Shown piece after piece: positions 3,194-23,670 of a stretch of DNA of 23,804 nucleotides. Source of the stretch: a virus; the IMG/VR virus record IMGVR_UViG_3300042291_000613, positions 1 through 23,804 of that record; one strand, written 5' to 3'. The translations under genes and the position numbers were made by a program. Each line of letters begins with the position of its first letter. Within the stretch, counting starts at the first letter, position 1. Under the pieces are notes generated by a model, which had not been told where the DNA came from, did not search any database, and saw nothing but the letters and a program-made list of their open reading frames with translations.

Positions 3194-3804
3194 ACGACTG
3201 TTACCTCTATGTCTGATTTTTTATAACTTTGATAATACTCCATTGGCGGTGGTTCGATACCCAAGGTTCTTGCCAAGGTCAGGTTGTCACCAATGTAATA
3301 GCTGTCTTTCCATGCTGCCAAGATGTCACGATTTTGATCTGCAATGATGCCGGCCATGTTTCTTAAGTTTACGTAATACTTATCATATTTGGGGTATGTG
3401 ATGTCAAAGTGTCCGCACTTGACCCACCAGCCCAGGCAAGCATCGTCGTTTCTGTGTACCAGAATAACAGGACACTCGGGCCAATGCTGCTTTAAGAAAT
3501 CAATATGATGCGCAAACACATGACTCTTAACAATGCGTACACCTTCACCTGAAAATGGACGATCAAATTCTGCTTCACATTCAGCTTTGGTATATTCGTT
3601 TAGTCGATCAAAGAATCCGCCAAATTCCATGCCGGGATCAAAGTATGCGCCCATATGCATCAAATGTGGTTCTCCCCAAGCACTGTGCCAGTATTCGCGT
3701 TCAGGACTTGCGTCACTACGATCGATACTGGGACTAAAGTAAATGTTCTTGCTGACACTGGACCACTTGGATCCCGGTGCACCTGCCATAAAAATATATT
3801 TCAT
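3190..3804 (-). CDS. Sulfotransferase-like protein
   Basis: The 204-residue protein starts MKYIFMAGAPGSKWSSVSKN, where residues 7-16 resemble the PAPS 5'-phosphosulfate-binding loop of sulfotransferases. A central VKSH segment (92-95) and VILVHRNDDACLGWW (113-127, R118-N119) resemble the 3'-phosphate-binding region with its conserved Arg. It is shorter than typical cellular sulfotransferases (250-300 aa), so it is a minimal version, possibly of altered activity. Family knowledge would predict transfer of sulfate from PAPS to a hydroxyl or amine of a small molecule or glycan. The substrate is unknown. The start codon overlaps the tctC-like stop (ATGA, 3801-3804) and its own stop overlaps the next ATG, locking it into the transporter cassette. 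Confidence 0.62.
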   Translation of the reverse strand: MKYIFMAGAPGSKWSSVSKNIYFSPSIDRSDASPEREYWHSAWGEPHLMHMGAYFDPGMEFGGFFDRLNEYTKAECEAEFDRPFSGEGVRIVKSHVFAHHIDFLKQHWPECPVILVHRNDDACLGWWVKCGHFDITYPKYDKYYVNLRNMAGIIADQNRDILAAWKDSYYIGDNLTLARTLGIEPPPMEYYQSYKKSDIEVTVV

Positions 3805-4862
3805 TTGATCACCAATTCAGGTTTGTAAACGCTTTTGAATTGATAAGCATTGTCGTGCCACCAAACCAAAGTCTGCAATTTTTTCTCAGTGATATTTTTA
3901 CGCAAGCGATCTACAACTTGATTACCGTCTGCGCCGACAATCCATGTGTAACGACCCGAGTCTGCTTCTAATGCTTTGACTGCGTCGGGATCGGCTAACA
4001 TACTGCGAAGTGCTGCTCGCAATTTTTCTGCATTGGGATTACCTTTGTTTACCCACAAAGCCTTTTGTAACACATCTCTAAAGTTTCTTTGCAGTGTATA
4101 CGCTTCATACAATTCGCCACGAGGCTCTTGTCCGTATATGCGTTTGAAGACATCTTCAAATCGAAAACCTGGAGGAAAGTTAGGATCTTCTTGCTGCTGA
4201 CCTGTTGCTAAATCTAACACACCGTGGTGATACCAAATCTTGCTGTCGGGTTTGTTGACATAGTGTTTGATCCAAGCAGCCGGTGTTTCTCTCACTGTGT
4301 TGAGTTCTCCTCGCTGATATGCCAATCTGCGTTCTGAACCTTTGATTCCGTTGACCCAGGTCACATGTTTTTTCCAACATGCCAGGTAATTTTCTTTCTT
4401 GGGCAAGTTGCCGCAGACCAGCATGGCAATGGCCATGCCGTCGGGTTCAAGTCCCGAGCCACCAGCAATACGTATACGATCACGTTCAGGATTAGTTGTA
4501 GCTGCATGTCCTAATACAATGTTGAGATTCTGCATGCCAATGGAATCGTAGTGCTTGTAGTCATAGTCAATTTGGTCTACCAGATAACTGACGCCGTTGC
4601 CGCCGTGGCTGACCATGATCACTTTGGGATCTGTTCTTAGCTTGTTGTGAAACTCGTTAAAGCCAGGAATGTCTTTGGCCCCAGGAATGTGCTGGATTAC
4701 AATTTTTTCTCCCAGATGCTTTTCTAAATGTCGGGCAACAATGTTGGCCCAAACACTGGTGCCACCTCCGGGTGCCTGTGGTACAATCATGCGATACTCA
4801 GCATGTGCTGTGCTGACTACAACAGCCAATCCAGCAATGATCAATTTTACTATGTTGCGCAT
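3801..4862 (-). CDS. tctC: TctC-type periplasmic solute-binding protein (TTT transporter)
   Basis: The product (353 aa) has a clear Sec signal peptide (MRNIVKLIIAGLAVVVSTAHA, predicted cleavage after AHA). The mature protein begins with the TctC/Bug hallmark: VPQAPGGGTSVWANIVARHL followed by GEKIVIQHIPGA. It should therefore be exported to the host periplasm, where such proteins capture carboxylates or related small solutes and deliver them to the TctA/TctB membrane complex. At 353 residues it is longer than usual (about 320). The region around residues 165-250 (rich in Trp, Lys, His) looks divergent, so ligand specificity cannot be transferred. A strong Shine-Dalgarno AAAGGAG lies 6 bases before ATG. 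It sits 11 bases after tctA and overlaps the sulfotransferase start by 4 bases. Confidence 0.88.
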   Translation of the reverse strand: MRNIVKLIIAGLAVVVSTAHAEYRMIVPQAPGGGTSVWANIVARHLEKHLGEKIVIQHIPGAKDIPGFNEFHNKLRTDPKVIMVSHGGNGVSYLVDQIDYDYKHYDSIGMQNLNIVLGHAATTNPERDRIRIAGGSGLEPDGMAIAMLVCGNLPKKENYLACWKKHVTWVNGIKGSERRLAYQRGELNTVRETPAAWIKHYVNKPDSKIWYHHGVLDLATGQQQEDPNFPPGFRFEDVFKRIYGQEPRGELYEAYTLQRNFRDVLQKALWVNKGNPNAEKLRAALRSMLADPDAVKALEADSGRYTWIVGADGNQVVDRLRKNITEKKLQTLVWWHDNAYQFKSVYKPELVIK

Positions 4863-4873
4863 ATTAATCTCCT

Positions 4874-6313
4874 TTAATGATATGCTAACCCGCGATTGGG
4901 TCTAAAAATACTGTAAGTTACAATGACTAGAGAAATAACGGTTAGAGACACAAATATGGGTCGTGTTGCCAATTCGTTTATGGTGTACAAGGCTTGAGTT
5001 TGCTGAATGTAATTTTCCAGTTTCTCTACCAGGATAAATGCCACCATCACTGCTGGGCGTGAGATACCAAATTTTTTGCAAGCCACGCCCAACACACTGC
5101 ACAATGCCAAAATATAAAGATCGTTCACAGTTCCAGTGTATTCCAAGCAACTCCATACAATAATGGACAAGATCACAACAGCGTAAATCCAGTAGGGTAT
5201 TTCCAGCAGCTTGACCACAATGCGTGTGGTAAACATTGCAATAAAAAATGCTAATACCGTGCTGGCAATAAATGCTCCGCCCAGGCTCCAGAAAAATGCA
5301 GTGTCTTTGAGTGTTTCAGGTGTGCCCAATTCCATTCCAAAGTAAACACATATGGCCATCATAATGGCTGCAAATGGTGCACCAGGGATGCCAAACAACA
5401 CAGTAGGAACCATGCTGGAAGCTTTTTGTGCATTGTTGGCACCTTCGCAGCCCAGCAAGCCTTTGATGTTGCCGTTGCCAAATGTTTCTCGGGGATTCTT
5501 AGCCACTGTGGCACCATAGGCCATGATGTCGCCTACCGATCCACCAATTCCTGGCAGCAGGCCTGAAACAAATCCAATGAATCCACCACGCAAAACTTCA
5601 CGCCAATGCATCACACAATCTCTGAACCCACGAAACAGTTGCGGCCAATAATCTGTAATGGGTTCTGGGCGTACTGCAGATTTTCTAAATCCCGACATGA
5701 CTTCTGGTATACCAAACAAGCCAGCAATCAAAGGAATCAATTGTATGCCGGCTCCGAGATATTCCCAACCACCGGTATAACGCACAACTCCCGTGGCAGG
5801 GTTTTGCCCAATCATACCTAGAAAACAGCCCAGGCCGATGGCCACCAAACTCAGCAGCACATTTTTGCTGGTAATGAATCCCACACAGGCCAGTGCCATC
5901 AACATGAACGCCATAAACTCCGGAATACCAAATACCAATACCAATTTGGAATACCATGGCATCAGTGCAAATGCTATTGTGCCCCACAGCACTCCGTTTA
6001 CAGTGGAATCCATAATGGCAATGCCAATGGCACGAGCAGCCTGTCCTTGCTGCGACATCTTGTATCCATCAATAATGCTGGCAGCGGTGGAATTACTACC
6101 GGGTATTCCGGTCAAGATACTGGTGAAACTGTCGCCAGTTGACGATGCTGCTATTAGACTGGTTAAAAACACAATGCCCAAGTAAGGATCTGCAAGAAAG
6201 TAACTGCTGAGTCCAAACACAGTTAATAAACCTGTGGTGGCCCCAGCCATTGGCATGATGCCAATAATCATTCCATAAACAGTACCAAGCAGGCACCAAA
6301 TCACATAATCCAT
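4874..6313 (-). CDS. tctA: TctA-family large permease subunit (tripartite tricarboxylate transporter)
   Basis: The 479-residue, highly hydrophobic protein carries family signatures: GIPGSNSTAASIIDGYKMSQ (residues 69-88), GIPEVMSGF (201-209), the loop GLLPGIGGSVGDIMAYG (251-267), and EGANNAQKASSMVPTVLFG (290-308) followed by IPG. About 10-12 membrane segments are visible. TctA is the large translocation subunit of the TTT system and would insert in the host inner membrane. Cellular systems also need the small TctB subunit. No tctB fits here, since only 11 bases separate this gene from tctC. In the first internal repeat the usual PG motif reads PMAG (21-24). The length is near the family norm (about 500), so the gene looks intact and expressed rather than decaying. 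Confidence 0.93.
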   Translation of the reverse strand: MDYVIWCLLGTVYGMIIGIMPMAGATTGLLTVFGLSSYFLADPYLGIVFLTSLIAASSTGDSFTSILTGIPGSNSTAASIIDGYKMSQQGQAARAIGIAIMDSTVNGVLWGTIAFALMPWYSKLVLVFGIPEFMAFMLMALACVGFITSKNVLLSLVAIGLGCFLGMIGQNPATGVVRYTGGWEYLGAGIQLIPLIAGLFGIPEVMSGFRKSAVRPEPITDYWPQLFRGFRDCVMHWREVLRGGFIGFVSGLLPGIGGSVGDIMAYGATVAKNPRETFGNGNIKGLLGCEGANNAQKASSMVPTVLFGIPGAPFAAIMMAICVYFGMELGTPETLKDTAFFWSLGGAFIASTVLAFFIAMFTTRIVVKLLEIPYWIYAVVILSIIVWSCLEYTGTVNDLYILALCSVLGVACKKFGISRPAVMVAFILVEKLENYIQQTQALYTINELATRPIFVSLTVISLVIVTYSIFRPNRGLAYH

Positions 6314-13749: not shown

Positions 13750-14455
13750 CTGTTAGATAGTACAGCTCAACTCGCTTGGTCCACTCATCAGTCCAGTAGT
13801 CAAATTCGTCACCTTCAATGACAAATTCCAAGTACTGTGGTTTAGTGTAGGTTTGATCTTCCAAGAGTTTGGGCTGCACAGCCATTAAAATAACACCGGT
13901 GTTGATGTCTGTTCCGTGCATTTCATTGTGGGCTTGTGCGTATGCTGCCAACTGCAAGAAGTAGTCAGTGATGTACTCACGCTTCTTGACCTTGTTGCTT
14001 TGTTTGAAGTCCATGATAGCAGGTCGGTCTTTCCATTTACCTACCAAGTCTGTAGTACCAGCATATAACCCACTATAATACACAGGAACTTCTGTACCCC
14101 AGAATTCTGTGGCATTTACCAAACCTTGCAAGATAATTTCGGCTGCCATGAACCAACTTGGGTGTGCAAATGGGTTGCTGGGCAAAGGCTTCATTTCGTC
14201 CATCATCACATAAGTTTCCAAGTAGGCATGCATGCGTGTGCCTCTGTTGGCTGCTTCTGTGGTGATTTGCTGGGCACGTTGTTCACCTACATTCTTGCGC
14301 CAGTTGGCCAAGGCGTCGCGATCTTTCTGCGGCTTGGTGCGGTCCAGGACGGTTGTTACACTGGGTACTTTCTTGCCATCAGGCAAGCAATAGTGTCTCT
14401 TGCCATCCACAGTGGTTCTGTCAATGGGCACATAATTATATCGTTGTGTTATCAT
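13745..14455 (-). CDS. PD-(D/E)XK nuclease (RecB/Cas4-type fold)
   Basis: From the ATG at 14455, which overlaps the iscA stop (TAATG), the product has 236 residues. An in-frame ATG 24 bases upstream exists but would lie inside iscA. Nuclease landmarks: RGTRMHAYLE (H76), E122 in GTEVPVYY, YAGTTDLVGK (D136), AIMDFKQS (D149, K151) and YFLQLAAYAQA (Q168, Y172), in the order motif H - D - D-x-K - QxxxY of RecB-family exonucleases. It probably acts as a DNA exonuclease in phage recombination, replication or host DNA breakdown. Cas4/AddB-type iron-sulfur cysteines are absent: only C23 is present. Coupling to iscA is therefore positional rather than a sign that this enzyme needs a cluster. Confidence 0.87.
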   Translation of the reverse strand: MITQRYNYVPIDRTTVDGKRHYCLPDGKKVPSVTTVLDRTKPQKDRDALANWRKNVGEQRAQQITTEAANRGTRMHAYLETYVMMDEMKPLPSNPFAHPSWFMAAEIILQGLVNATEFWGTEVPVYYSGLYAGTTDLVGKWKDRPAIMDFKQSNKVKKREYITDYFLQLAAYAQAHNEMHGTDINTGVILMAVQPKLLEDQTYTKPQYLEFVIEGDEFDYWTDEWTKRVELYYLTA

Positions 14456-14781
14456 TAGATTGTAAAACTCTCGCCACATCCGCAGCGAGCCGATTCCTTG
14501 GGGTTGGAAAAATCAAAGCCTTCGTTGAGACCTTGACGTGTGTAGTCTATTTCTAAGCCGTCGATATAGGCCAAATCTTTGCTATTGACCCAAACTCTGG
14601 CACCGTCTCGCTCATACTCAGTCCAGTCCCAGGTACAAGGTGCTTCATCCATATATTCTAGCACATAGGCCAAGCCCGAGCACCCTGTGGTTTTAACACC
14701 CACTCGAATGCCCACACCTGATCCACGCTTGGCTATGTTGCTGACAATCTTCTTTGCTGCTGTTTCAGTTATGGTTATCAT
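14455..14781 (-). CDS. iscA: IscA-type A-family iron-sulfur carrier
   Basis: The 108-residue protein has the A-type carrier pattern: MITITETAAKKIVSNIAKRG, then GIRVGVKTTGCSGLAYVLEY with C34 and the C-terminal CGCGESF with C100 and C102. These three cysteines match those used for cluster or iron binding in IscA/SufA/HesB (Cys35, 99, 101 in E. coli IscA). The sequence is closest to proteobacterial IscA. It receives [2Fe-2S] or [4Fe-4S] clusters and passes them to apo-proteins in the cytoplasm. The ATG lies within the end of the iscU C-terminal ORF (17-base overlap), and its stop overlaps the nuclease start. No iscS, hscA, hscB or fdx is present in the window, so it must plug into the host machinery. 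Confidence 0.95.
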   Translation of the reverse strand: MITITETAAKKIVSNIAKRGSGVGIRVGVKTTGCSGLAYVLEYMDEAPCTWDWTEYERDGARVWVNSKDLAYIDGLEIDYTRQGLNEGFDFSNPKESARCGCGESFTI

Positions 14782-15031
14782 GTTTATTTCTGTAGTCTGC
14801 TATGGCTGCACGGACAGAATCCTCGGCTAGGATGGAACAATGAATTTTTACAGGCGGGAGAGCCAACTCCTCAGCAATATCCATATTACGAATTTCTAAT
14901 GCTTGGTCAAGAGTTTTCCCTTTGACCCATTCAGTAACCAATGACGAACTGGCAATGGCCGATCCGCAGCCGTATGTTTTGAATTTTGCATCTGTAATAA
15001 TGCCATCTAGAACTTTAATCTGTAACCTCAT
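14765..15031 (-). CDS. iscU: IscU scaffold, C-terminal part (separate ORF)
   Basis: This ORF encodes residues equivalent to about 41-128 of IscU: MRLQIKVLDGIITDAKFKTY, then GCGSAIASSSLVTEWVKGK (second ligand Cys), LPPVK (the HscA recognition motif) and IHCSILAEDS (third ligand Cys). The ATG at 15031 has an AGGAG Shine-Dalgarno 5 bases upstream, inside the apparent 7-base insertion that ends the N-terminal ORF. The frame is open up to a GTG at 15061, but that start has no better ribosome site. The piece lacks the first scaffold cysteine (Cys37 equivalent) and the N-terminal region. It could work only together with the N-terminal peptide, by +1 frameshifting, or not at all. Conservation of every other feature argues against long decay. 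Confidence 0.9.
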   Translation of the reverse strand: MRLQIKVLDGIITDAKFKTYGCGSAIASSSLVTEWVKGKTLDQALEIRNMDIAEELALPPVKIHCSILAEDSVRAAIADYRNKHDNHN

Positions 15032-15041
15032 TACATCTCCT

Positions 15042-15158
15042 CTAACCGCAAGCTGGGGCACCGACTAAGCCGGTCCCAACTTGCGCATCTCCTTTATCAA
15101 ATGTTCCTACATTTCTTGGATTTTCATAATGGTCCAAGACTTCTTTTGAATATGCCAT
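15042..15158 (-). CDS. iscU: IscU scaffold, N-terminal part ending at a premature stop
   Basis: A 38-residue peptide starts at ATG 15158 with Shine-Dalgarno AGGAG 6 bases upstream. It reads MAYSKEVLDHYENPRNVGTF and ends GLVGAPACG, the near-canonical IscU N-terminus including the first cluster ligand Cys (C37). A TAG follows exactly where IscU should continue with DVM. Removing the 7 bases TAGAGGA would join it in frame to the downstream ORF and give the standard 128-residue length. A +1 slip at GGT-TAG would instead give a full-length protein with Arg-Gly added after the Cys-Gly. Nothing in this stretch looks degraded, so the break is recent, functional or an assembly artefact. Confidence 0.9.
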   Translation of the reverse strand: MAYSKEVLDHYENPRNVGTFDKGDAQVGTGLVGAPACG

Positions 15159-16311: not shown

Positions 16312-16650
16312 TTAAAGTCCTTTTTTGTTTAGTGCCCGCTTGGCCATTGTGTCAACAGTGTCGCGAGCCTGATCCACAGTCATGTTTGGTGCACCTTCTA
16401 CAGCACCTTTGAATATGATTTCGGTGTCAGTGACATCGGCAATTAATTCATTTAGCGGAGCCTGCTGAACCAGATTGCGCAGTTGAGAGTCAGTTAGGCT
16501 GACACCTATGTTGTTGGCCAATTCAAGAAATGCAGCAATAGATATTTTCTTTTGTGCATCTGTATCTTGCGCACGTGCCAACAAAAACTGGCTTAATGCA
16601 GCCAGTTCTGTTGTGCTTTGTGTAGATACGTCGAATTCGTCAAGTCGCAT
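16312..16650 (-). CDS. Hypothetical protein, helical, probable virion/assembly factor
   Basis: The 112-residue product (MRLDEFDVSTQSTTELAALS...) is mainly alpha-helical, with segments ALSQFLLARAQDTDAQKKIS and FLELANNIGVSLTDSQLRNL, and a Lys-rich C-terminus (RALNKKGL). It has no cysteine, signal peptide or membrane span. Its ATG overlaps the stop of the preceding Ala-rich gene (TAATG, 16650), indicating co-translation and a shared pathway. The neighbours look like capsid or assembly proteins. No family name can be given with confidence. Confidence 0.75.
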   Translation of the reverse strand: MRLDEFDVSTQSTTELAALSQFLLARAQDTDAQKKISIAAFLELANNIGVSLTDSQLRNLVQQAPLNELIADVTDTEIIFKGAVEGAPNMTVDQARDTVDTMAKRALNKKGL

Positions 16651-17639
16651 TACTTGGTTTTCTTGGCAAAAGGATTTTTCTTTTTGTCCGCAGCAGCCTT
16701 CTTCATTGATTCTTTCTTGTTGCCGTCTTTGTCTAAATCAATGTAGTCGGGTTTAGCAGCTTCGGCTACGTCACGGCGTTCACGACCCAAGCCGGCACCA
16801 CCTAACGGTGTTGGCTCTTCTTCGTCAGCTGGTGCAGCTTCAGCATCGACATCAAGTTCGGCTCCTATTTCTGGGGCAGGCTCAGCGTTTAAGTCAGCAC
16901 CCATGTCTGCAGCAGGCTCAGCACCTGGTACAACTGGAGCAGTACCTGTCAATGTGCCTTGTGCGCCTTCTAAGGCTGTCTTACCTTGTTGCACACTGGA
17001 CAACAACTGTGTAAGTGCGGCAGCAGCAGCTGATTGATAAGCAGTGGCTTGATCAACACCCATGTCGTTCTTGATTGAATCTGTCAAGGCTGGCAGATCT
17101 TTAAACTGCATGGCGCTGATCTGTTCCAGCATTTTTTGTACTTGATCAACCATGTCTTGTGCAGCCAACACAACTTGAGCTTGTTGGATTTCGCTTTCGC
17201 GTAGTCTGCGACGTGCTTGCATTGATTCTTTCTGCATAGAAGCAGTAGCAATGGCTCCCACCAGCTTTTGCTCTTCAGGATTGAGAGTTTGGCCAGCTTG
17301 CGATTTTTTCATTGCAGCTTGAACTTTGGGATCTTTGGGATCAACAGCCATGGTAGGTTCTGTACCTGGTGCTGCCGGAGCTGGCATAGCAGCCTCGTGC
17401 AGGCGTCCTTTGAGACCAGATTCAAGCATAAGCAGTTTGAGATAAGCAGGATCACGTTCGCTTGAGTGCGATGCAGCACTGGATCTGTGCTCATTGATCA
17501 GCCCACGCACACGCATCAGCATATGGCGTGATTCACGCAGAGTAAGATTATTAAACGAAACGGTTTGACCCAATCGTTGTTCTAATACTTGTGCTGCTTT
17601 ATCTTGTTGTTTGAGTGCGTCTAGTTCGTGCAGTTTCAT
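16650..17639 (-). CDS. Ala/Gln-rich probable prohead or structural protein with EF-hand-like tail
   Basis: The preferred start is the internal ATG at 17639 (MKLHELDALKQQDKAAQVLE), with AAGGA 10 bases upstream, rather than the first ATG at 17684. That gives 329 residues. The N-terminal 90 residues are helical (ESRHMLMRVRGLINEHRSS, then YLKLLMLESGLKGRLHEA). A Pro/Ala/Gly/Asp/Glu-rich linker follows (about 245-300), and the C-terminus reads YIDLDKDGNKKESMKKAAAD then a Lys-rich end. DLDKDG resembles the calcium loop of EF-hands but lacks the position-12 Glu. The composition, helical with acidic linker and basic tail, fits a scaffold-core or internal capsid protein. That is inference. The 5' end overlaps the preceding gene by 41 bases. 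Confidence 0.72.
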   Translation of the reverse strand: MKLHELDALKQQDKAAQVLEQRLGQTVSFNNLTLRESRHMLMRVRGLINEHRSSAASHSSERDPAYLKLLMLESGLKGRLHEAAMPAPAAPGTEPTMAVDPKDPKVQAAMKKSQAGQTLNPEEQKLVGAIATASMQKESMQARRRLRESEIQQAQVVLAAQDMVDQVQKMLEQISAMQFKDLPALTDSIKNDMGVDQATAYQSAAAAALTQLLSSVQQGKTALEGAQGTLTGTAPVVPGAEPAADMGADLNAEPAPEIGAELDVDAEAAPADEEEPTPLGGAGLGRERRDVAEAAKPDYIDLDKDGNKKESMKKAAADKKKNPFAKKTK

Positions 17640-18099
17640 CGCGGTTGAATCCTTGTATTTGCCAGTATTTAGCCAAATTGACACATTTAGTTAATTGTTT
17701 TTCTACTGTGTACATTGTGGTTTTTTTGGTTGTTAGCTTAAGGTGCGCAACTTCTTTACGCTCTACATTGCTAATGGTTTTTAACAAAGACTGTCGTACA
17801 GCAATGTCATCAGACATGCGTAGTTTTTCTTTGTCTAGGCTTACCAAGCGATAAGCCAAGTTAATCTGTTGATATTTGTCAGCAATACACCAGCTGAACG
17901 CAATACGCAAGGAACTGAAAGTTTTTGGATCGTAGCGACGTTTTACAACATCAAACGTACCGGAGGAATTTTTTGTTATTGTATAAGTGTCAAAAACATG
18001 ATATTGATTGTTGTCACAGAATATTAAATTATCTTTAATCTGTTCAAAATCTTCTTCTACCAGCTTTTCCAGCTGTTTTAAAACAGCATCTTGTTTCAT
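17599..18099 (-). CDS. Hypothetical protein (166 aa)
   Basis: The start at ATG 18099 (MKQDAVLKQLEKLVEEDFEQ) is chosen because it overlaps the stop of the upstream coiled-coil gene by ATGA; the longer frame begins inside that gene. The product has an N-terminal helix, a beta-like middle (YHVFDTYTITKNSSGTFDVV) and a basic C-terminus (RDETARTRRTQTTR), and two cysteines in the body. No domain is recognised. It overlaps the next gene by 41 bases, an unusually long overlap here, with that gene's Shine-Dalgarno inside it. Role unknown; position suggests a virion-assembly or morphogenesis block. Confidence 0.68.
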   Translation of the reverse strand: MKQDAVLKQLEKLVEEDFEQIKDNLIFCDNNQYHVFDTYTITKNSSGTFDVVKRRYDPKTFSSLRIAFSWCIADKYQQINLAYRLVSLDKEKLRMSDDIAVRQSLLKTISNVERKEVAHLKLTTKKTTMYTVEKQLTKCVNLAKYWQIQGFNRDETARTRRTQTTR

Positions 18100-18377: not shown

Positions 18378-18818
18378 TTATTTATCGTCTATTTGCTGAA
18401 CAACATCAAACCAAATATTGGCTGCTGAGCCTTGAGTAGATAAAAAAGCAGCATTATCCTGAGATTCTCCGAGTCCGGTTATCATGGGAACGCCGTTGCA
18501 GTCAGCTACTAGATATCCAACAGGGTTGTTGTTGAAGGTAACAGAACCTGGATCAACTACATCAAACTCAAATGACCAAGTTGCAGCAGCAGAATCCACA
18601 AGCGGTGTTGATATACGTTCAGGCAATGTACGTAAACTGATCACTTGATTTACAGTTTCCCAGTTACATTGCTGATTTCTGGCCAGTTGCCATTCTGCTT
18701 GTGTTGTGATTGTTCGTCCAGTTTTGTCACAAAACGGCATGTTTGATCTAAACACACGATTGCGTATACCAGTTTCAGTGATGTCAAAGCGGGTAGTACA
18801 TTTTATTCTTACAGTCAT
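18378..18818 (-). CDS. Hypothetical phage protein (146 aa)
   Basis: The start at ATG 18818 overlaps the oxygenase stop (ATGA, 18815-18818). The protein reads MTVRIKCTTRFDITETGIRN, then QCNWETVNQVISLRTLPERI, then a beta-rich C-terminal half (ATWSFEFDVVDPGSVTFNNN). It has four cysteines without a clear metal pattern. No signal peptide or membrane span. I recall proteins with this N-terminus in T4-like marine phages as conserved hypotheticals, possibly virion-linked, but no function is established. The last codons contain the late-type element for the next gene. Confidence 0.72.
   Translation of the reverse strand: MTVRIKCTTRFDITETGIRNRVFRSNMPFCDKTGRTITTQAEWQLARNQQCNWETVNQVISLRTLPERISTPLVDSAAATWSFEFDVVDPGSVTFNNNPVGYLVADCNGVPMITGLGESQDNAAFLSTQGSAANIWFDVVQQIDDK
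18379..18386 (-). promoter_or_regulatory. Candidate late promoter element GATAAATA
   Basis: The minus strand reads GATAAATA across the stop codon of the 146-residue gene, 20 bases upstream of the ATG at 18359. It matches the T4 late consensus TATAAATA at 7 of 8 positions and equals the element at the PAAR gene. It lies in the loop of a short 5-bp stem (TAGAC/GTCTA) next to the AAGGA ribosome site, a weak echo of the PAAR leader. Confidence 0.45.
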
Positions 18819-19477
18819 ATTGATATCGACATCTGTGACATATCGGCCTGTGTTATTCTTGAATTTAATGCAATCACTATGCGATCTGTTGTGCCGCGAT
18901 AAACAACCGCAGAATGCTGTACCCAACTGGGGAAAACAATCATCATGCCAGGTTCAGCTCTGAAATCAATACTGGTGTTGCGGTTTGTCCAGGCCATTCC
19001 GGCATCTGCATACGCACAATTATTGGGATTGTAAAATCTGTTGACACCATTTTTATCTTCAGCAGCACCCATGTCTCCGGTGTCTACATAATAGATAGCA
19101 GACCAAGAACTACCTGGATGAGCATGCATGTCGTGATAGCCGCCGTCGCGGGTAATGTGGCACCAGGACTCGTGTATTTCTACATTGACATTCATGCCCG
19201 GGGGCCAATACGGCTTATTGGCGTTGGCAGCAGCACGAAATAAACATTGTTTGGCCCAATGACTAAATGCAACAATAGCAGGCGAATCTGTGGTCACAAA
19301 ATCAAACCCACTTTCGTATAAACCGCGTTTGGCATCTGGTGCCACATTGCTGACATGCTTCTTAGCTTCAAGATCATAACATACCCGAGCAAGTTCGTCA
19401 CGATATTGATCGTGTTCTGCCCATTGAAAATCGTACATCAAAACAGGCCATAATGGAATTGTATTAAGTGGTTGCAT
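18815..19477 (-). CDS. 2OG-Fe(II) oxygenase (phage type)
   Basis: The 220-residue protein has a clear non-heme iron core: GYHDMHAHPGSSWSAIYYVD (residues 113-132, ligands among H118 and H120), then GMMIVFPSWVQHSAVVY with distal H188 and R199 in TTDRIVIALN as the 2-oxoglutarate-binding Arg. The H-x-HPGS...SAIYYV pattern is that of the putative 2OG-Fe(II) oxygenase family often seen in T4-like phages of marine bacteria. It probably hydroxylates a protein or small molecule using 2-oxoglutarate and O2. The substrate is unknown. The first gene after the terminator at 19498-19527, it may start from ATTAAATA at 19488-19495, a poor late-type match. Stop overlaps the next ATG. Confidence 0.87.
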   Translation of the reverse strand: MQPLNTIPLWPVLMYDFQWAEHDQYRDELARVCYDLEAKKHVSNVAPDAKRGLYESGFDFVTTDSPAIVAFSHWAKQCLFRAAANANKPYWPPGMNVNVEIHESWCHITRDGGYHDMHAHPGSSWSAIYYVDTGDMGAAEDKNGVNRFYNPNNCAYADAGMAWTNRNTSIDFRAEPGMMIVFPSWVQHSAVVYRGTTDRIVIALNSRITQADMSQMSISI

Positions 19478-20086: not shown

Positions 20087-21988
20087 CTATCCTAATTCAG
20101 GATTGTTTTTAGCAAAATTTGCAGCACTAAAACGCATGCGATCCACAAACTTCATGCCATTGCCCACATAGCCTTCGTGTCCAGGTTCGTTGTTGATACT
20201 GGCTTTGACATCGTGTGCTTGTGCATCCAGCTGACGAACCACTTGATTCTTAAGGTTGGATATTTCCAAGAACGCTTGAAATAGTGCTGCCACTGCTTGC
20301 TTGTTTTCTGTGGCCCATTCAAATATGCGTGGTGCCTTGGCAGGTGCTTTTTGTTTGACCCATTCACCAAACCCGCCGATCAAGTTGTCGTAACTGCCCG
20401 ATCGAACACGGCTGTTGATGTAGGTTTTAATTAAGGCAGGAAAGTCGCTGATTTTACGTGCTCGCAGTTCGGCAGGATTAAACAGGCGATCCATTGCAGA
20501 ACCATACTTTGTGAGCAAACTGTTGGCGTCCTTGACTGATTTATCATTTAATTGTATTTTGCGAGGCTCTTTTAAACTGGGATCCAAGATCAAAAGCCCA
20601 GGGCTATCAGTTAGAGCAGCAGCACGAATAGGAGTGGGTGCAGCACCCGGAGCAGCGAGTGCAGTATGTATGGCCACTGCTGCTTGGCTTTGTGCAATTT
20701 TCTTGCCTAATTCTGTATCAGCCGGTACAGTGTATTTTACTGTGTTGGGTGTAAACACATAGTCGTTGCCCACTAGCTCAGGTGTTTCGCTGTACAACAA
20801 GTCGCCTTGAATGTAGCCACGAAAGTCCTGTGGCACAGCACGGCGTAACAAGGGAAATAAACGTTGATACAGTGCAACAAGTTCACCACGTTCTCCGCCA
20901 CGCATGTTCATGATTTGTGCAATCTGTTCTGGACTTGTGGCCAGACCATCATAGCCCTTGGCTCCAAATCCTGACTTGTCTGTGAGCACAAACTCTCCGT
21001 TTGGTTTGCGACCAAATATGATGGCAGGCTTGCCATCCCACTTGACAGTGGTTTCGCTGGGATTTTGAGCAGCGGCCACAATACCATCTAAGGCCTGTTT
21101 AAGACCAGCACTGGGACGCTGATCAAAAATCATGTCCTCTGGATGTTCAATGCGCACACCTTCTACAATAACCTGCATGCCTTGATTTACAATACGATCA
21201 CGTAAACGGGCCATGATACTGACTTCGTTATATTCTGTATACAAGTCTGTGTTTTCGTAAATGCCTTCGTCAAACTGTATGCCTTCACGTTCCATGTGTG
21301 CTTTAAAGTCAGCAATTTTTGCAGCACGTTTAGGATCTGCTTCTAGGGCCTTGAGAATAGATTCTACGCTGTACAAGTCAGAAGGTGTGGCATTTGGGCT
21401 CAACAACATCTGCGCCACCATGGCAGGATCATCAGTGATCATTTCGTCGGTGGCACGATTCATGATGCCGTCATTTTGATTCAGTTTGTAACCCAAGGCT
21501 TTGGCCATTGAATTCATCATGATGTTGCGTAGCGCACCCTTGTATTTGCTCTTAGGATCACTGCTTAATACAAACTGTGTCCAGCGCGGCTTGTTACTAA
21601 ACATAAAGTCTGTTTGTACAAAGCCGTTTTTAGGATCACCCCCAATGGCAGTAAAGAAGTGTACAGCTGATCCCGACTTCTTGATGTATTTGGCAGGATC
21701 CACACCTTTGCTTTTGGCCCACTGCGACAATACCGCAACCAACTGATCTTTGCTCATTTCTCCAGCATCCACACTCATGTCTAGGTCGCCCGAATCAGCT
21801 TTACGACCAGTTGAGCCTAACCACTTGACGGGTTTGCCATCGCGCGGGTCTCGATCTGTTGTGAGATCAAGGCCAGTGATCTGTTCCAGCCATTTGGCTG
21901 TGGGCATCACGTCAGCTTGAGCAATACGCTGTGTAAGCGGATTACCTGCTGTATCTTTGAATACGTTGCCGCCTTCGTTTAAATTCAT
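20087..21988 (-). CDS. Fusion of polymerase-beta-like nucleotidyltransferase and KxDG ligase-like domains
   Basis: The 633-residue protein has two recognisable parts. The N-terminal part shows the NTase fold: WLGSTGRKADSGDLDMSVD (G58-S59 loop, D68 and D70 metal ligands) and FVQTDFMF (D127, third carboxylate). From about residue 280 a second part has TTVKWDGKPAIIFG (K316, D318, G319), the KxDG nucleotidyl-lysine motif of DNA/RNA ligases and capping enzymes, then FVLTDKSGFG, YIQGDLLYS (G395-D396) and NTVKYTVP (K418) as candidate further motifs. I recall the second part as a conserved domain of unknown function in T4-like phages (possibly DUF6267). A nucleic-acid end-healing or sealing role is inferred. 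Its ATG overlaps the upstream stop (ATGA). Confidence 0.75.
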   Translation of the reverse strand: MNLNEGGNVFKDTAGNPLTQRIAQADVMPTAKWLEQITGLDLTTDRDPRDGKPVKWLGSTGRKADSGDLDMSVDAGEMSKDQLVAVLSQWAKSKGVDPAKYIKKSGSAVHFFTAIGGDPKNGFVQTDFMFSNKPRWTQFVLSSDPKSKYKGALRNIMMNSMAKALGYKLNQNDGIMNRATDEMITDDPAMVAQMLLSPNATPSDLYSVESILKALEADPKRAAKIADFKAHMEREGIQFDEGIYENTDLYTEYNEVSIMARLRDRIVNQGMQVIVEGVRIEHPEDMIFDQRPSAGLKQALDGIVAAAQNPSETTVKWDGKPAIIFGRKPNGEFVLTDKSGFGAKGYDGLATSPEQIAQIMNMRGGERGELVALYQRLFPLLRRAVPQDFRGYIQGDLLYSETPELVGNDYVFTPNTVKYTVPADTELGKKIAQSQAAVAIHTALAAPGAAPTPIRAAALTDSPGLLILDPSLKEPRKIQLNDKSVKDANSLLTKYGSAMDRLFNPAELRARKISDFPALIKTYINSRVRSGSYDNLIGGFGEWVKQKAPAKAPRIFEWATENKQAVAALFQAFLEISNLKNQVVRQLDAQAHDVKASINNEPGHEGYVGNGMKFVDRMRFSAANFAKNNPELG

Positions 21989-23670
21989 ATTCTTCTTTGT
22001 CTCTTGTGGCTTTCATTTGTGCCGGTGGCCAGTCTGTCACGATCGTCAATTATTTCTAAATCCTTGATCAATTGTTTTCTTTGTTCTGGGGTCATCATTT
22101 CATATGATTTAAGAATTTGATCAGTGTCCATTGCCGGAGCAGCGGTGGCTGATTTACCTGCAGCAGGTTGAGTAGCAGTGGCAGCAGCAGGTTGAGTAGC
22201 AGTGGCAGCAGTAGTAGCAGCAGGTTCGACAGCAGGTTGTGCTGCTGCGGGGGTTCTAACCCACGACGGTACTGGTGCTTCTACTGCATTGAATGCAGAT
22301 GCAACAACATCATCTTTAACTCCAGCTTGTCTTAATATCGCAGCTATTTTCTCGCTGTCCATGGGTTTACCGTCTTTTGTCCACATGGATTTTAACTTGT
22401 CAGCTGTGACTTTGGTAGTGAGATTTTTACCTTTGGTTTTCAACCAATCCATCGGTCCTTCGTTTAACAAGCTACCAGCAACAGCAAATATTTCGTGTAC
22501 TTCTTTATTGGTTAATCTAATGTGATGTTCGCGAACCTGATTTGTTGCAGTGCCGGCAGTAGGAGTTTTAGCTGCCGGCGCAGGTGCTGCAGATGCTCCT
22601 GCTAATCCACCTTGTACCGCCGCACGAAGCGTTGAAGAAATTTTAGCGGCTACTTCCTTAAAATTAGCAGCATTAGCTACTGCTTGATCATATAATGTTT
22701 GATTATTACCAGCTATCTCTTTTACATACTGCCGTACCTCTGGATTATCAACTATGGCTGTAACTTCATTCCAAAATTTACCTGCACTTGCCCAATCGTT
22801 ACGATCGATATAGTTTGAAACCTGATCTAAAAGTAATTTTAATTTAGGAGCTAATTGACTAGGAATCTCTATTCCACGAAGATCACCAAAAAAGTATCCA
22901 GGATTGTTACCACCAACCTGGACGTCTTGCCGAATAAAGTCGAGTTTAGCAAGCTGTGTATATCCTGGTATCTGACTGGCAACAACCTTGATGTTTCCAA
23001 AATAATCACCTAGTGCGGTTATGCCGGCGCCCAAAGCTCCACCAATGGCTGCAGACTTTGCACCTCGTCCCACAGCAGTTGATAACTTCTCACCTTTGAG
23101 TAATTCTACTGCTCCACGTAACACTTGACCAGCAACAGCACCACCTGCAGGACCGCCAGCAAAGGATGCCACTGCTGTGAGTGCACCTATCACAAAGGCT
23201 GTCTTGCCAGGGTTGGCTTTAGCGTATTGACCCAGTTGATCAACTATAGCCATTGTTTTGCTGTCGGCACCCAACTTGGCAGTGATTTTGCGCTTTAGCT
23301 CATCAAACTGATCATCAAAATACTTCACAGGTGCAGTGGTCTGTAGGTAACCGCCTAACTTGTTGATAGCATCGTTGACAGCACCAGCAGTGCTGCCAAC
23401 TGCACTGCCTACTTTACTGCCCACTGCTTTGGTTACATCTACTGCCTGACCAACACCTGAGCGATTAACGCCAGCACTGGTGAGATTTTGTTCTGCTTGA
23501 GAAAATATTTGATCAATTTTTGTTTGGGTCAAAGGTGCTTCAAACAAGGGACGCAGTTGATTGACAATACCTTCTACAACACGACGTTGATCTCGAGTGA
23601 GATCACGACACACACTTTCCAACAAGGTAGCGTGAGGTGTTGCGGGCAAGGTTATTTCAAATATGTTCAT
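21985..23670 (-). CDS. Large Ala/Gly-rich probable virion protein (561 aa)
   Basis: The protein begins MNIFEITLPATPHATLLESV. Residues about 60-100 and 160-240 are rich in Gly/Ala with hydrophobic stretches (TAFVIGALTAVASFAGGPAG, then SAAIGGALGAGITALGDYFG) that resemble glycine-zipper membrane-active segments. A helical middle follows, then a C-terminal segment LTNKEVHEIFAVAGSLLNEG and SMWTKDGKPMDSEKIAAILR with QAGVKD, a motif I recall in several T4-like marine phage proteins. An Ala/Thr/Pro linker encodes repeated ATATQPAA, and the end is basic (SHKRQRRI). It may be an internal head or injected protein that meets the membrane, but this is inference. It overlaps both neighbours by ATGA, so three genes form one coupled string. 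Confidence 0.68.
   Translation of the reverse strand: MNIFEITLPATPHATLLESVCRDLTRDQRRVVEGIVNQLRPLFEAPLTQTKIDQIFSQAEQNLTSAGVNRSGVGQAVDVTKAVGSKVGSAVGSTAGAVNDAINKLGGYLQTTAPVKYFDDQFDELKRKITAKLGADSKTMAIVDQLGQYAKANPGKTAFVIGALTAVASFAGGPAGGAVAGQVLRGAVELLKGEKLSTAVGRGAKSAAIGGALGAGITALGDYFGNIKVVASQIPGYTQLAKLDFIRQDVQVGGNNPGYFFGDLRGIEIPSQLAPKLKLLLDQVSNYIDRNDWASAGKFWNEVTAIVDNPEVRQYVKEIAGNNQTLYDQAVANAANFKEVAAKISSTLRAAVQGGLAGASAAPAPAAKTPTAGTATNQVREHHIRLTNKEVHEIFAVAGSLLNEGPMDWLKTKGKNLTTKVTADKLKSMWTKDGKPMDSEKIAAILRQAGVKDDVVASAFNAVEAPVPSWVRTPAAAQPAVEPAATTAATATQPAAATATQPAAGKSATAAPAMDTDQILKSYEMMTPEQRKQLIKDLEIIDDRDRLATGTNESHKRQRRI
22161..22208. repeat. 24-bp tandem repeat in the Ala/Gly-rich gene
   Basis: Two consecutive copies of CAGCAGGTTGAGTAGCAGTG plus GCAG occupy 22161-22184 and 22185-22208, with a degenerate third copy after them. 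The period is 24 bases, so reading frame is kept and each unit encodes ATATQPAA in the Ala/Pro linker. It probably arose by slippage or unequal recombination and may vary between related phages. Confidence 0.85.

What the first reader, a model, noticed from the sequence alone, without database searches (positions are those of the whole stretch)
20087..21988. Nucleotidyltransferase fused to a KxDG ligase-like domain
Seen: GS loop with D68/D70/D127 of the polymerase-beta fold in the first third, and K316-W-D-G with downstream TDKSG, GDLL and VKY candidates in the middle. Known: KxDG enzymes form a lysine-NMP intermediate; polymerase-beta NTases add nucleotides to RNA ends, small molecules or proteins. 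One protein with both could trim-fill and seal tRNA or genome ends, or counter host nuclease defence such as tRNA-cleaving systems. Its neighbours are virion-like, so a role in packaged DNA end processing or co-injection is also possible.
Basis: partly seen in the sequence, partly recalled or inferred. Interest (0 to 1): 0.7.

Follow-up and report, generated by a model that had tools for sequence, protein, structure and literature searches.

The report
Phage polymerase fused to hidden ligase
This phage gene encodes one protein that joins a small gap-filling DNA-polymerase-like domain to a nucleic-acid-ligase-like domain never annotated as such (Pfam DUF6267), and the same ligase-like domain sits in every sampled T4-like marine cyanophage, a group reported to lack any phage DNA ligase.

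Summary
The 633-aa ORF (minus strand, 20087-21988) is under strong purifying selection (dN/dS about 0.05). Its N-terminal domain (about 6-240) is predicted with good confidence and matches family X DNA polymerases (Pol beta/lambda/mu/TdT; Z 11.2, about 161 residues), palm plus thumb only, with invariant G58-S59, D68, D70 and D127. Its C-terminal domain (279-626) is Pfam DUF6267, function unknown. Predicted alone (pLDDT 89.6), all 50 PDB entries listed by VIA-align are polynucleotide ligases (best Naegleria RNA ligase, Z 7.9). Split relatives of the two domains lie side by side in jumbo phages Atu_ph07 and Phosso and two genes apart in PA5oct. DUF6267 without the polymerase is in 12/12 Kyanoviridae genomes tested, none of which has a recognisable DNA or RNA ligase; T4 and KVP40 show the reverse. 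Most likely a fill-and-seal nucleic-acid repair enzyme, DNA more likely than RNA; activity is untested. Packaging in the virion is unproven.

The parts
20087..21988 (-). whole gene, 633 aa: family X polymerase-like domain + DUF6267 ligase-like domain
   Evidence: dN/dS about 0.05
21974..21988 (-). 5-residue leader M-x-[IL]-x-E before G6; possible prohead-protease (LxE|G) site, unproven
   Evidence: 17/17 relatives fit M-x-[IL]-x-E-G; split homologues in jumbo phages start directly at M-GG or M-SG
21269..21973 (-). N-terminal family X DNA polymerase-like domain (residues 6-240; palm + thumb fold match 9-209)
   Evidence: VIA-align Z 11.2, 161 aligned, rmsd 3.0 to Pol beta; listed rows all Pol X; Foldseek 4m9h E 8e-4
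21812..21817 (-). GS loop, G58-S59
   Evidence: invariant in A1 and A4
21779..21787 (-). first two catalytic aspartates D68-x-D70
   Evidence: invariant incl. PA5oct and Lak homologues
21608..21610 (-). third catalytic aspartate D127 (VQTDFMF)
   Evidence: invariant
21155..21265 (-). flexible linker, residues 242-278
   Evidence: pLDDT below 50
20111..21154 (-). C-terminal DUF6267 = covalent-nucleotidyltransferase (ligase)-like domain, residues 279-626
   Evidence: PF19782 145 bits vs cut-off 27; model pLDDT 89.6, pTM 0.84; all 50 VIA rows are polynucleotide ligases, best Z 7.9
21032..21043 (-). motif I K316-W-D-G, putative nucleophilic lysine
   Evidence: K, D and G invariant in 44 DUF6267 proteins
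20969..20983 (-). T336-D-K-S-G; K338 invariant across DUF6267
20795..20806 (-). motif III-like G395-D-L-L (D396 invariant)
20732..20749 (-). P414-N-T-V-x-Y419, shared with jumbo-phage KLDG proteins (PNSIRY, PNTVVY, PNVIEY)
20219..20545 (-). about 110-residue all-helical insertion, residues 482-590, between PNTVxY and motif IV
   Evidence: DSSP of model; reduced in some cyanophage members
20165..20176 (-). motif IV E605-G-Y-V
20141..20152 (-). motif V K613-F-V-D
   Evidence: K, V and D invariant; jumbo-phage proteins have KVVDK, KIVDK
21985..23670 (-). upstream gene, ATGA overlap with the start; weak homologue of PA5oct gp257, a MS-detected structural protein
   Evidence: (E 2e-5, two-sequence comparison)

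Best explanation
The gene encodes a single-chain fill-and-seal nucleic-acid end-repair enzyme. The N-terminal minimal family X polymerase module (palm and thumb; GS, D68, D70, D127; two metals) would add nucleotide(s) to a 3'-OH at a gap or processed end. The C-terminal DUF6267 module would load AMP on K316, pass it to a 5'-phosphate and seal the strand. Most likely substrate is gapped or nicked phage DNA; RNA is the main alternative. Shown here: sequence, conservation, selection, predicted folds, recurrent pairing of the two modules, and the complementary distribution of DUF6267 and recognised ligases. Inferred: catalysis, cofactor, substrate, and that the two modules act in sequence.
For: N-domain fold: Pol X, Z about 11, E 8e-4. 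C-domain fold: every one of 50 listed PDB entries is a polynucleotide ligase of the covalent NTase superfamily. Invariant motifs I, IV and the motif V lysine. Homologues of the N-domain sit beside separate KLDG proteins in Atu_ph07 (gp66/gp65 overlapping genes; gp66 hits Pfam RNA_ligase E 0.002), Phosso (gp446/gp447) and PA5oct (gp256/gp253). Profile comparison aligns DUF6267 with these KLDG proteins at motif I and PNxxxY. In Kyanoviridae DUF6267 often lies after gp43-uvsX-gp41-mazG and 12/12 genomes have it while 0/12 have PF01068, PF01653 or PF09414; T4 and KVP40 are the reverse. Purifying selection on both domains.
Against: No sequence-level hit of either domain to any known polymerase or ligase (Pfam, NCBIfam, PDB). 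Foldseek alone is weak for the C-domain (best E 0.056) and Z 7.9 is near the background for unmatched models; the uniformity of the list is the stronger point. No room for an OB domain after motif V. Motif V is KxV, not KxK. A contig of a close relative (G002) also carries a canonical ATP DNA ligase, so the fusion is not that phage's only ligase. Lak phages carry the Pol X-like gene with no adjacent ligase.
Confidence: 0.6

Rival explanations
1. RNA (tRNA) repair: the N-domain restores nucleotides lost from a cleaved RNA and the C-domain ligates it, countering host anticodon nucleases, as proposed for RlaP NTases with RNA ligases.
For: Top fold matches of the C-domain are RNA ligases (Naegleria RNA ligase, REL1, T4 Rnl1); no OB domain; Atu_ph07 gp66 hits the RNA_ligase profile; NTase plus RNA-ligase pairing is a known theme in jumbo phages (PMC7824862).
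Against: N-domain matches DNA polymerases of family X and has no RlaP Pfam hit; cyanophage DUF6267 sits with replication genes; no kinase or phosphatase partner seen beside it; DNA ligases score only about 2 Z units lower.
Confidence: 0.22
2. Virion cargo (compatible with either substrate): the protein is packaged by a 5-residue prohead-protease leader and injected to mend the ends or gaps of incoming DNA, or to modify host molecules, like T4 internal proteins.
For: 17/17 relatives carry M-x-[IL]-x-E-G, resembling the T4 core protease site LxE|G (site from general knowledge); genes 16312-17684 and 21985-23670 start alike; PA5oct homologue of the N-domain annotated as detected by ESI-MS/MS; the cytidylyltransferase next to cyanophage DUF6267 is found in virions.
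Against: The same N-terminal pattern occurs in about 6% of all ORFs of related contigs, gp32-like ones included; T4-GC71 is not among the virion-detected core proteins named for S-SM1; 5 residues is short for a targeting leader.
Confidence: 0.25
3. DUF6267 is a covalent nucleotidyltransferase that does not seal nucleic acids: it AMPylates or GMPylates a protein or small molecule, perhaps with NAD+ as donor, with the neighbouring or fused NMNAT-like cytidylyltransferase recycling NMN.
For: In cyanophages the next gene is a CTP_transf_like/NMNAT-like protein, and proteins of about 600 aa matching DUF6267 are named cytidyltransferase-like in BFVD; no OB domain; odd motif V.
Against: Pairing or fusion with a Pol X module points to nucleic-acid ends; no LigA-type Ia domain is visible before motif I; the NMNAT-like gene was not found in the available window-type contigs.
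Confidence: 0.1
4. Fold without catalysis: both domains are enzyme-derived structural or binding modules of the virion.
For: Virion-like neighbourhood; low sequence similarity to any active enzyme.
Against: All candidate catalytic residues are invariant down to about 25% identity, which structural reuse would not preserve.
Confidence: 0.05

Closest known systems
DUF6267 (Pfam PF19782; T4-GC71 of cyanophages; PHROG 455)
   Same: The C-domain is a clear member (145 bits, residues 280-627).
   Different: Most cyanophage and pelagiphage members are about 300-420 aa and lack the polymerase-like domain; the family has no assigned function.
Family X DNA polymerases (Pol beta, lambda, mu, TdT; minimal viral form ASFV Pol X)
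   Same: Palm plus thumb fold and GS/DxD/D catalytic set.
   Different: No 8-kDa or helix-hairpin-helix fingers domain; no Pfam Pol X hit; fused to a ligase-like domain. ASFV comparison is from general knowledge.
RNA ligases of the covalent NTase superfamily (Naegleria RNA ligase, REL1, T4 Rnl1) and ATP-dependent DNA ligases
   Same: NTase-domain fold and motifs I, IV and the motif V lysine.
   Different: No detectable sequence relation, helical insertion of about 110 residues before motif IV, motif V KxV, no OB or other C-terminal domain.
RlaP NTase + RNA ligase repair pairs of jumbo phages (PMC7824862)
   Same: A Pol-beta-superfamily NTase working beside an ATP-grasp-type ligase.
   Different: Here Pol X-like by fold with no RlaP sequence hit, DUF6267 rather than Rnl1/Rnl2, and in one polypeptide.
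Bacterial LigD (NHEJ polymerase-ligase)
   Same: Works like: polymerase and ligase in one chain.
   Different: The LigD polymerase is of the archaeo-eukaryotic primase type (general knowledge); no Ku or phosphoesterase part here.

Membership tests
DUF6267 (PF19782) | score above Pfam gathering cut-off over most of the profile | tested here: met
   145.2 bits vs 27, profile 4-374/376
Covalent nucleotidyltransferase / polynucleotide ligase superfamily | motif I KxDG with invariant lysine | tested here: met
   K316, D318, G319 invariant in 44 sequences
Covalent nucleotidyltransferase / polynucleotide ligase superfamily | motif IV EGxV | tested here: met
   E605, G606, V608 invariant
Covalent nucleotidyltransferase / polynucleotide ligase superfamily | motif V KxK | tested here: inconclusive
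   K613-x-V615: first lysine invariant, second position is Val
Covalent nucleotidyltransferase / polynucleotide ligase superfamily | motif III acidic residue | tested here: inconclusive
   D396 invariant in GDLL-type sequence; structural equivalence to ligase Glu not seen residue by residue
Covalent nucleotidyltransferase / polynucleotide ligase superfamily | NTase-domain fold | tested here: met
   50 of 50 listed VIA rows are ligases, best Z 7.9, 178 aligned, rmsd 3.8; Foldseek alone weak, E 0.056
Covalent nucleotidyltransferase / polynucleotide ligase superfamily | lysyl-NMP intermediate | not testable with these tools
   needs biochemistry
ATP- or NAD-dependent DNA ligases (PF01068, PF01653) | sequence-profile match | tested here: not met
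   no hit in hmmscan of window protein and relatives
ATP- or NAD-dependent DNA ligases (PF01068, PF01653) | OB-fold domain after motif V | tested here: not met
   chain ends about 20 residues after K613 with one helix
Family X DNA polymerase | GS ... DxD ... D catalytic set | tested here: met
   invariant in 17 sequences
Family X DNA polymerase | palm and thumb fold | tested here: met
   Z 11.2, residues 11-208 vs Pol beta 142-334
Family X DNA polymerase | sequence-profile match to Pol X models | tested here: not met
   no Pfam, NCBIfam or PDB sequence hit
Family X DNA polymerase | HhH fingers / 8-kDa domain | tested here: not met
   domain starts at the palm; no N-terminal extension
RlaP NTase | match to RlaP profile | tested here: not met
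   no Pfam hit at E up to 1 in window protein or 16 relatives; fold relation not tested
T4-type packaged internal protein | present in virion and cleaved after LxE | not testable with these tools
   only sequence pattern available

The most novel reading that the evidence does not exclude
DUF6267 is the unrecognised polynucleotide ligase of the T4-like cyanophage/pelagiphage family (Kyanoviridae), replacing the missing T4 gp30 DNA ligase, and in the window's phage group it has been fused to a minimal family X polymerase to give a one-chain gap-filling and sealing enzyme.
Probability: 0.35. Interest if true: 0.8.

Novelty: new variant of a known kind. Interest (0 to 1): 0.66.

Why it matters
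A 2010 review states that homologues of T4 DNA ligase (g30) are not found in cyanomyoviruses and that either distant homologues have not been identified or the genes are absent (PMC2984593). DUF6267 is a concrete, previously unannotated candidate that is present in all 12 Kyanoviridae genomes tested and lies in the replication gene block in several of them. A simple adenylylation and nick-sealing assay would answer the question. The fusion also gives a rare architecture, Pol X-like plus ligase-like in one chain, which ties two uncharacterised phage families to nucleic-acid end repair and may be useful as a reagent.

Tried and rejected
Sequence-only routes failed: phmmer/hmmsearch against the PDB with the protein, A1, A3 and A4, NCBIfam and a scan of bacterial and archaeal genomes (54 pattern matches, none a relative) gave nothing, so the family appears phage-restricted. 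hhalign of DUF6267 against T4/KVP40-type DNA ligases, Rnl2-like and LigA sequences gave no meaningful alignment; only the jumbo-phage KLDG group aligned (E 6e-4, probability 28%). Scans for IMG/VR relatives of Phosso gp447 and PA5oct gp253 returned none. 'VKY' as motif V was rejected because its lysine is not conserved. The N-terminal M-x-[IL]-x-E pattern was tested as a packaging signal: about 6% of ORFs in two related contigs fit, gp32-like and capsid-like ones (judged by eye) included, so it is not specific. S-CREM2 proteomics was checked for DUF6267: the virion cytidylyltransferase ORF154 is not beside a DUF6267 gene there; its DUF6267 lies at 58914-59762, a position not in the published list of detected virion ORFs. 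An NMNAT-like neighbour for window-type phages was sought and not found in the available contigs. Whether the window phage has another DNA ligase could not be settled because the window and relatives are fragments; one 81-kb relative has a PF01068 ligase. The T4 gp30 tblastn listing shows only the ten most frequent organism names, so it was not used as evidence of absence.

Full report
1. Observation. The finding is one ORF on the minus strand, 20087-21988, 633 aa, ATG start; it overlaps the upstream gene by ATGA. The window is a 23.8-kb virus fragment. Compared with relatives at 89-92% identity, dN/dS is 0.046-0.053 over the ORF and similar for both domains, so the whole chain is under constraint.

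2. Relatives. A scan of IMG/VR gave 105 loci encoding relatives; the best 80 were kept, mostly full length and down to 44% identity. None was confirmed in bacterial or archaeal genomes. Pfam assigns only residues 280-627, to DUF6267 (145 bits); PHROG 455 is also of unknown function. DUF6267 without the N-domain is found by tblastn in several hundred phage records, nearly all T4-like cyanophages with a few pelagiphages, methylophage Melnitz and others. No paper in the held library mentions DUF6267.

3. N-terminal domain. AlphaFold2 with 44 sequences gave mean pLDDT 83.6 with two confident domains and a disordered linker at 242-278. Residues 9-209 match family X DNA polymerases: Foldseek best E 8e-4, probability 1.00; VIA-align Z 11.2 over 161 residues at 3.0 A, and every row listed is Pol beta, lambda, mu or TdT. 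The aligned range covers palm and thumb, with no fingers or 8-kDa domain. G58, S59, D68, D70 and D127 are invariant in 17 sequences, including 22-31% identical homologues from PA5oct, Atu_ph07, Phosso and Lak phages. No sequence method finds this relation.

4. C-terminal domain. Modelled alone with 33 sequences: pLDDT 89.6, pTM 0.84. VIA-align lists only polynucleotide ligases among its 50 entries: Naegleria RNA ligase (Z 7.9, 178 residues, 3.8 A), RNA editing ligase 1 (6.8), T4 Rnl1 (6.6), Trl1, and DNA ligases at 5.5-6.0. Foldseek alone is weak (E 0.056, an archaeal RNA ligase), and a Z of 7.9 by itself would be near background; the consistency of the list together with the motifs carries the argument. 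Across 44 DUF6267 proteins the invariant residues include K316-x-D-G, K338, D396, PNT-x-x-Y419, E605-G-x-V608 and K613-x-V-D-R. The order I, III-like, PNTVxY, helical insertion (482-590), IV, V follows the ligase order.

5. The two modules recur together. Homologues of the N-domain are separate genes in jumbo phages. In Atu_ph07 gp65 overlaps gp66, which starts LLEKLDGSF, has EGVV near its end and hits Pfam RNA_ligase at E 0.002; in Phosso gp447 overlaps gp446 (EKLDGSF ... EGVV ... KVVDK); in PA5oct gp253 lies two genes from gp256 (EKIDGYY ... EGYV ... KIVDK). Profile comparison of DUF6267 with these KLDG proteins gives E 6e-4 (probability only 28%) with motif I and PNxxxY aligned. Fusion in the window group and adjacency elsewhere are a classical sign of joint function. 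Lak phages carry only the Pol X-like gene at that place, so the pairing is not obligatory.

6. Distribution of ligases. Twelve Kyanoviridae genomes (S-8S56, P-RSM6, P-SSM4, Melnitz, S-CREM2, S-SCSM1, P-TIM68, S-PM2, HTVC008M, P-SSM2, Syn9, S-SM1) all have DUF6267 and none has a match to PF01068, PF01653 or PF09414; T4 and KVP40 have no DUF6267 and have PF01068 and PF09414 matches. Exceptions: Vibrio phage 2.275.O has DUF6267 together with PF01068 and PF09414, and the 81-kb contig of a close relative of the window phage has a PF01068 ligase besides the fused gene. The Pol X-like profile was not found in any of these 12, nor in T4, KVP40 or Vibrio 2.275.O. In many cyanophages the DUF6267 gene follows gp43, uvsX, gp41 and mazG and precedes an NMNAT-like cytidylyltransferase; in some (S-CREM2, P-SSM2, P-TIM68, S-SCSM1) it lies elsewhere. 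A review notes that T4 g30 ligase homologues are not found in cyanomyoviruses and may be too distant to recognise (PMC2984593). DUF6267 is therefore a specific candidate for that gap.

7. Virion link. Neighbours of the window gene are virion-like: 16650-17684 matches a virion structural PHROG, and the upstream gene is weakly similar to PA5oct gp257, a MS-detected structural protein. PA5oct gp253, the homologue of the N-domain, is annotated as detected by ESI-MS/MS. The cytidylyltransferase beside cyanophage DUF6267 is found in virions (PMC3037559 and PMC10665884). But the S-SM1 virion study names T4-GC15 and T4-GC190, not T4-GC71, as detected core proteins, and the S-CREM2 list has no ORF at its DUF6267 position. 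All window-type relatives carry a 5-residue M-x-[IL]-x-E leader before G6, absent from jumbo-phage homologues, which would fit a prohead-protease site, but similar starts occur in other genes. Packaging stays open.

8. Mechanism. Best supported: a fill-and-seal enzyme for nucleic-acid ends, DNA preferred on the Pol X fold and the replication-gene context of DUF6267, RNA possible on the RNA-ligase resemblance and the missing OB domain. Catalysis, cofactor and substrate are inferred. The known RlaP plus RNA-ligase pairing in jumbo phages (PMC7824862) and bacterial LigD (general knowledge) work in a comparable way; this protein is not a member of either by the tests made or by what is known of them.

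9. Verdict. Observation confirmed; interpretation partly supported and extended. Novelty lies in giving DUF6267 a ligase-like identity and in the Pol X-ligase fusion; searches of the held papers found no earlier report, but that library is partial. Without biochemistry the claim stays a well-supported prediction.

Noticed in passing
3801-6313 (-): TctA permease of the tripartite tricarboxylate transporter family (PF01970, E 2e-91) followed by a TctC-like periplasmic binding protein (the latter recognised by eye only): an unusual solute-transport gene pair for a phage.
   Followed up: partly
L276:3863-4828 and L277:3863-4840: Lak megaphages (540 kb, genetic code 15) carry a stand-alone Pol X-like nucleotidyltransferase with the same GS, DxD and D set, not beside a ligase gene.
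   Followed up: partly
L086:5824-6501 and L087:5773-6561: A third gene, 43% identical between Phosso (gp448) and Atu_ph07 (gp64), directly follows the Pol X-like gene in both; no known family.
   Followed up: partly
L083, L084, L275, L286: Cyanophage DUF6267 genes are followed directly by an NMNAT-like cytidylyltransferase, and BFVD holds proteins of about 600 aa matching DUF6267 that are named cytidyltransferase-like, suggesting an NAD or adenylyl-transfer connection.
   Followed up: partly
PV764938.1 118350-119132 (-): Phosso has a second Pol X-like gene (E 4e-25 with profile A4) elsewhere in its genome.
   Followed up: no
L066:7070-7090: The 191-kb relative has the fused ORF split by a frameshift near residue 357 of the product; sequencing error or real break not decided.
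   Followed up: no
18815-19477 (-): 2OG-Fe(II) oxygenase gene (PF13759) close to the finding; similar oxygenases lie near DUF6267 in cyanophages.
   Followed up: no
14455-15061 (-): Two short genes whose sequences look like iron-sulphur cluster assembly proteins (IscA-like and IscU-like), judged by eye only.
   Followed up: no
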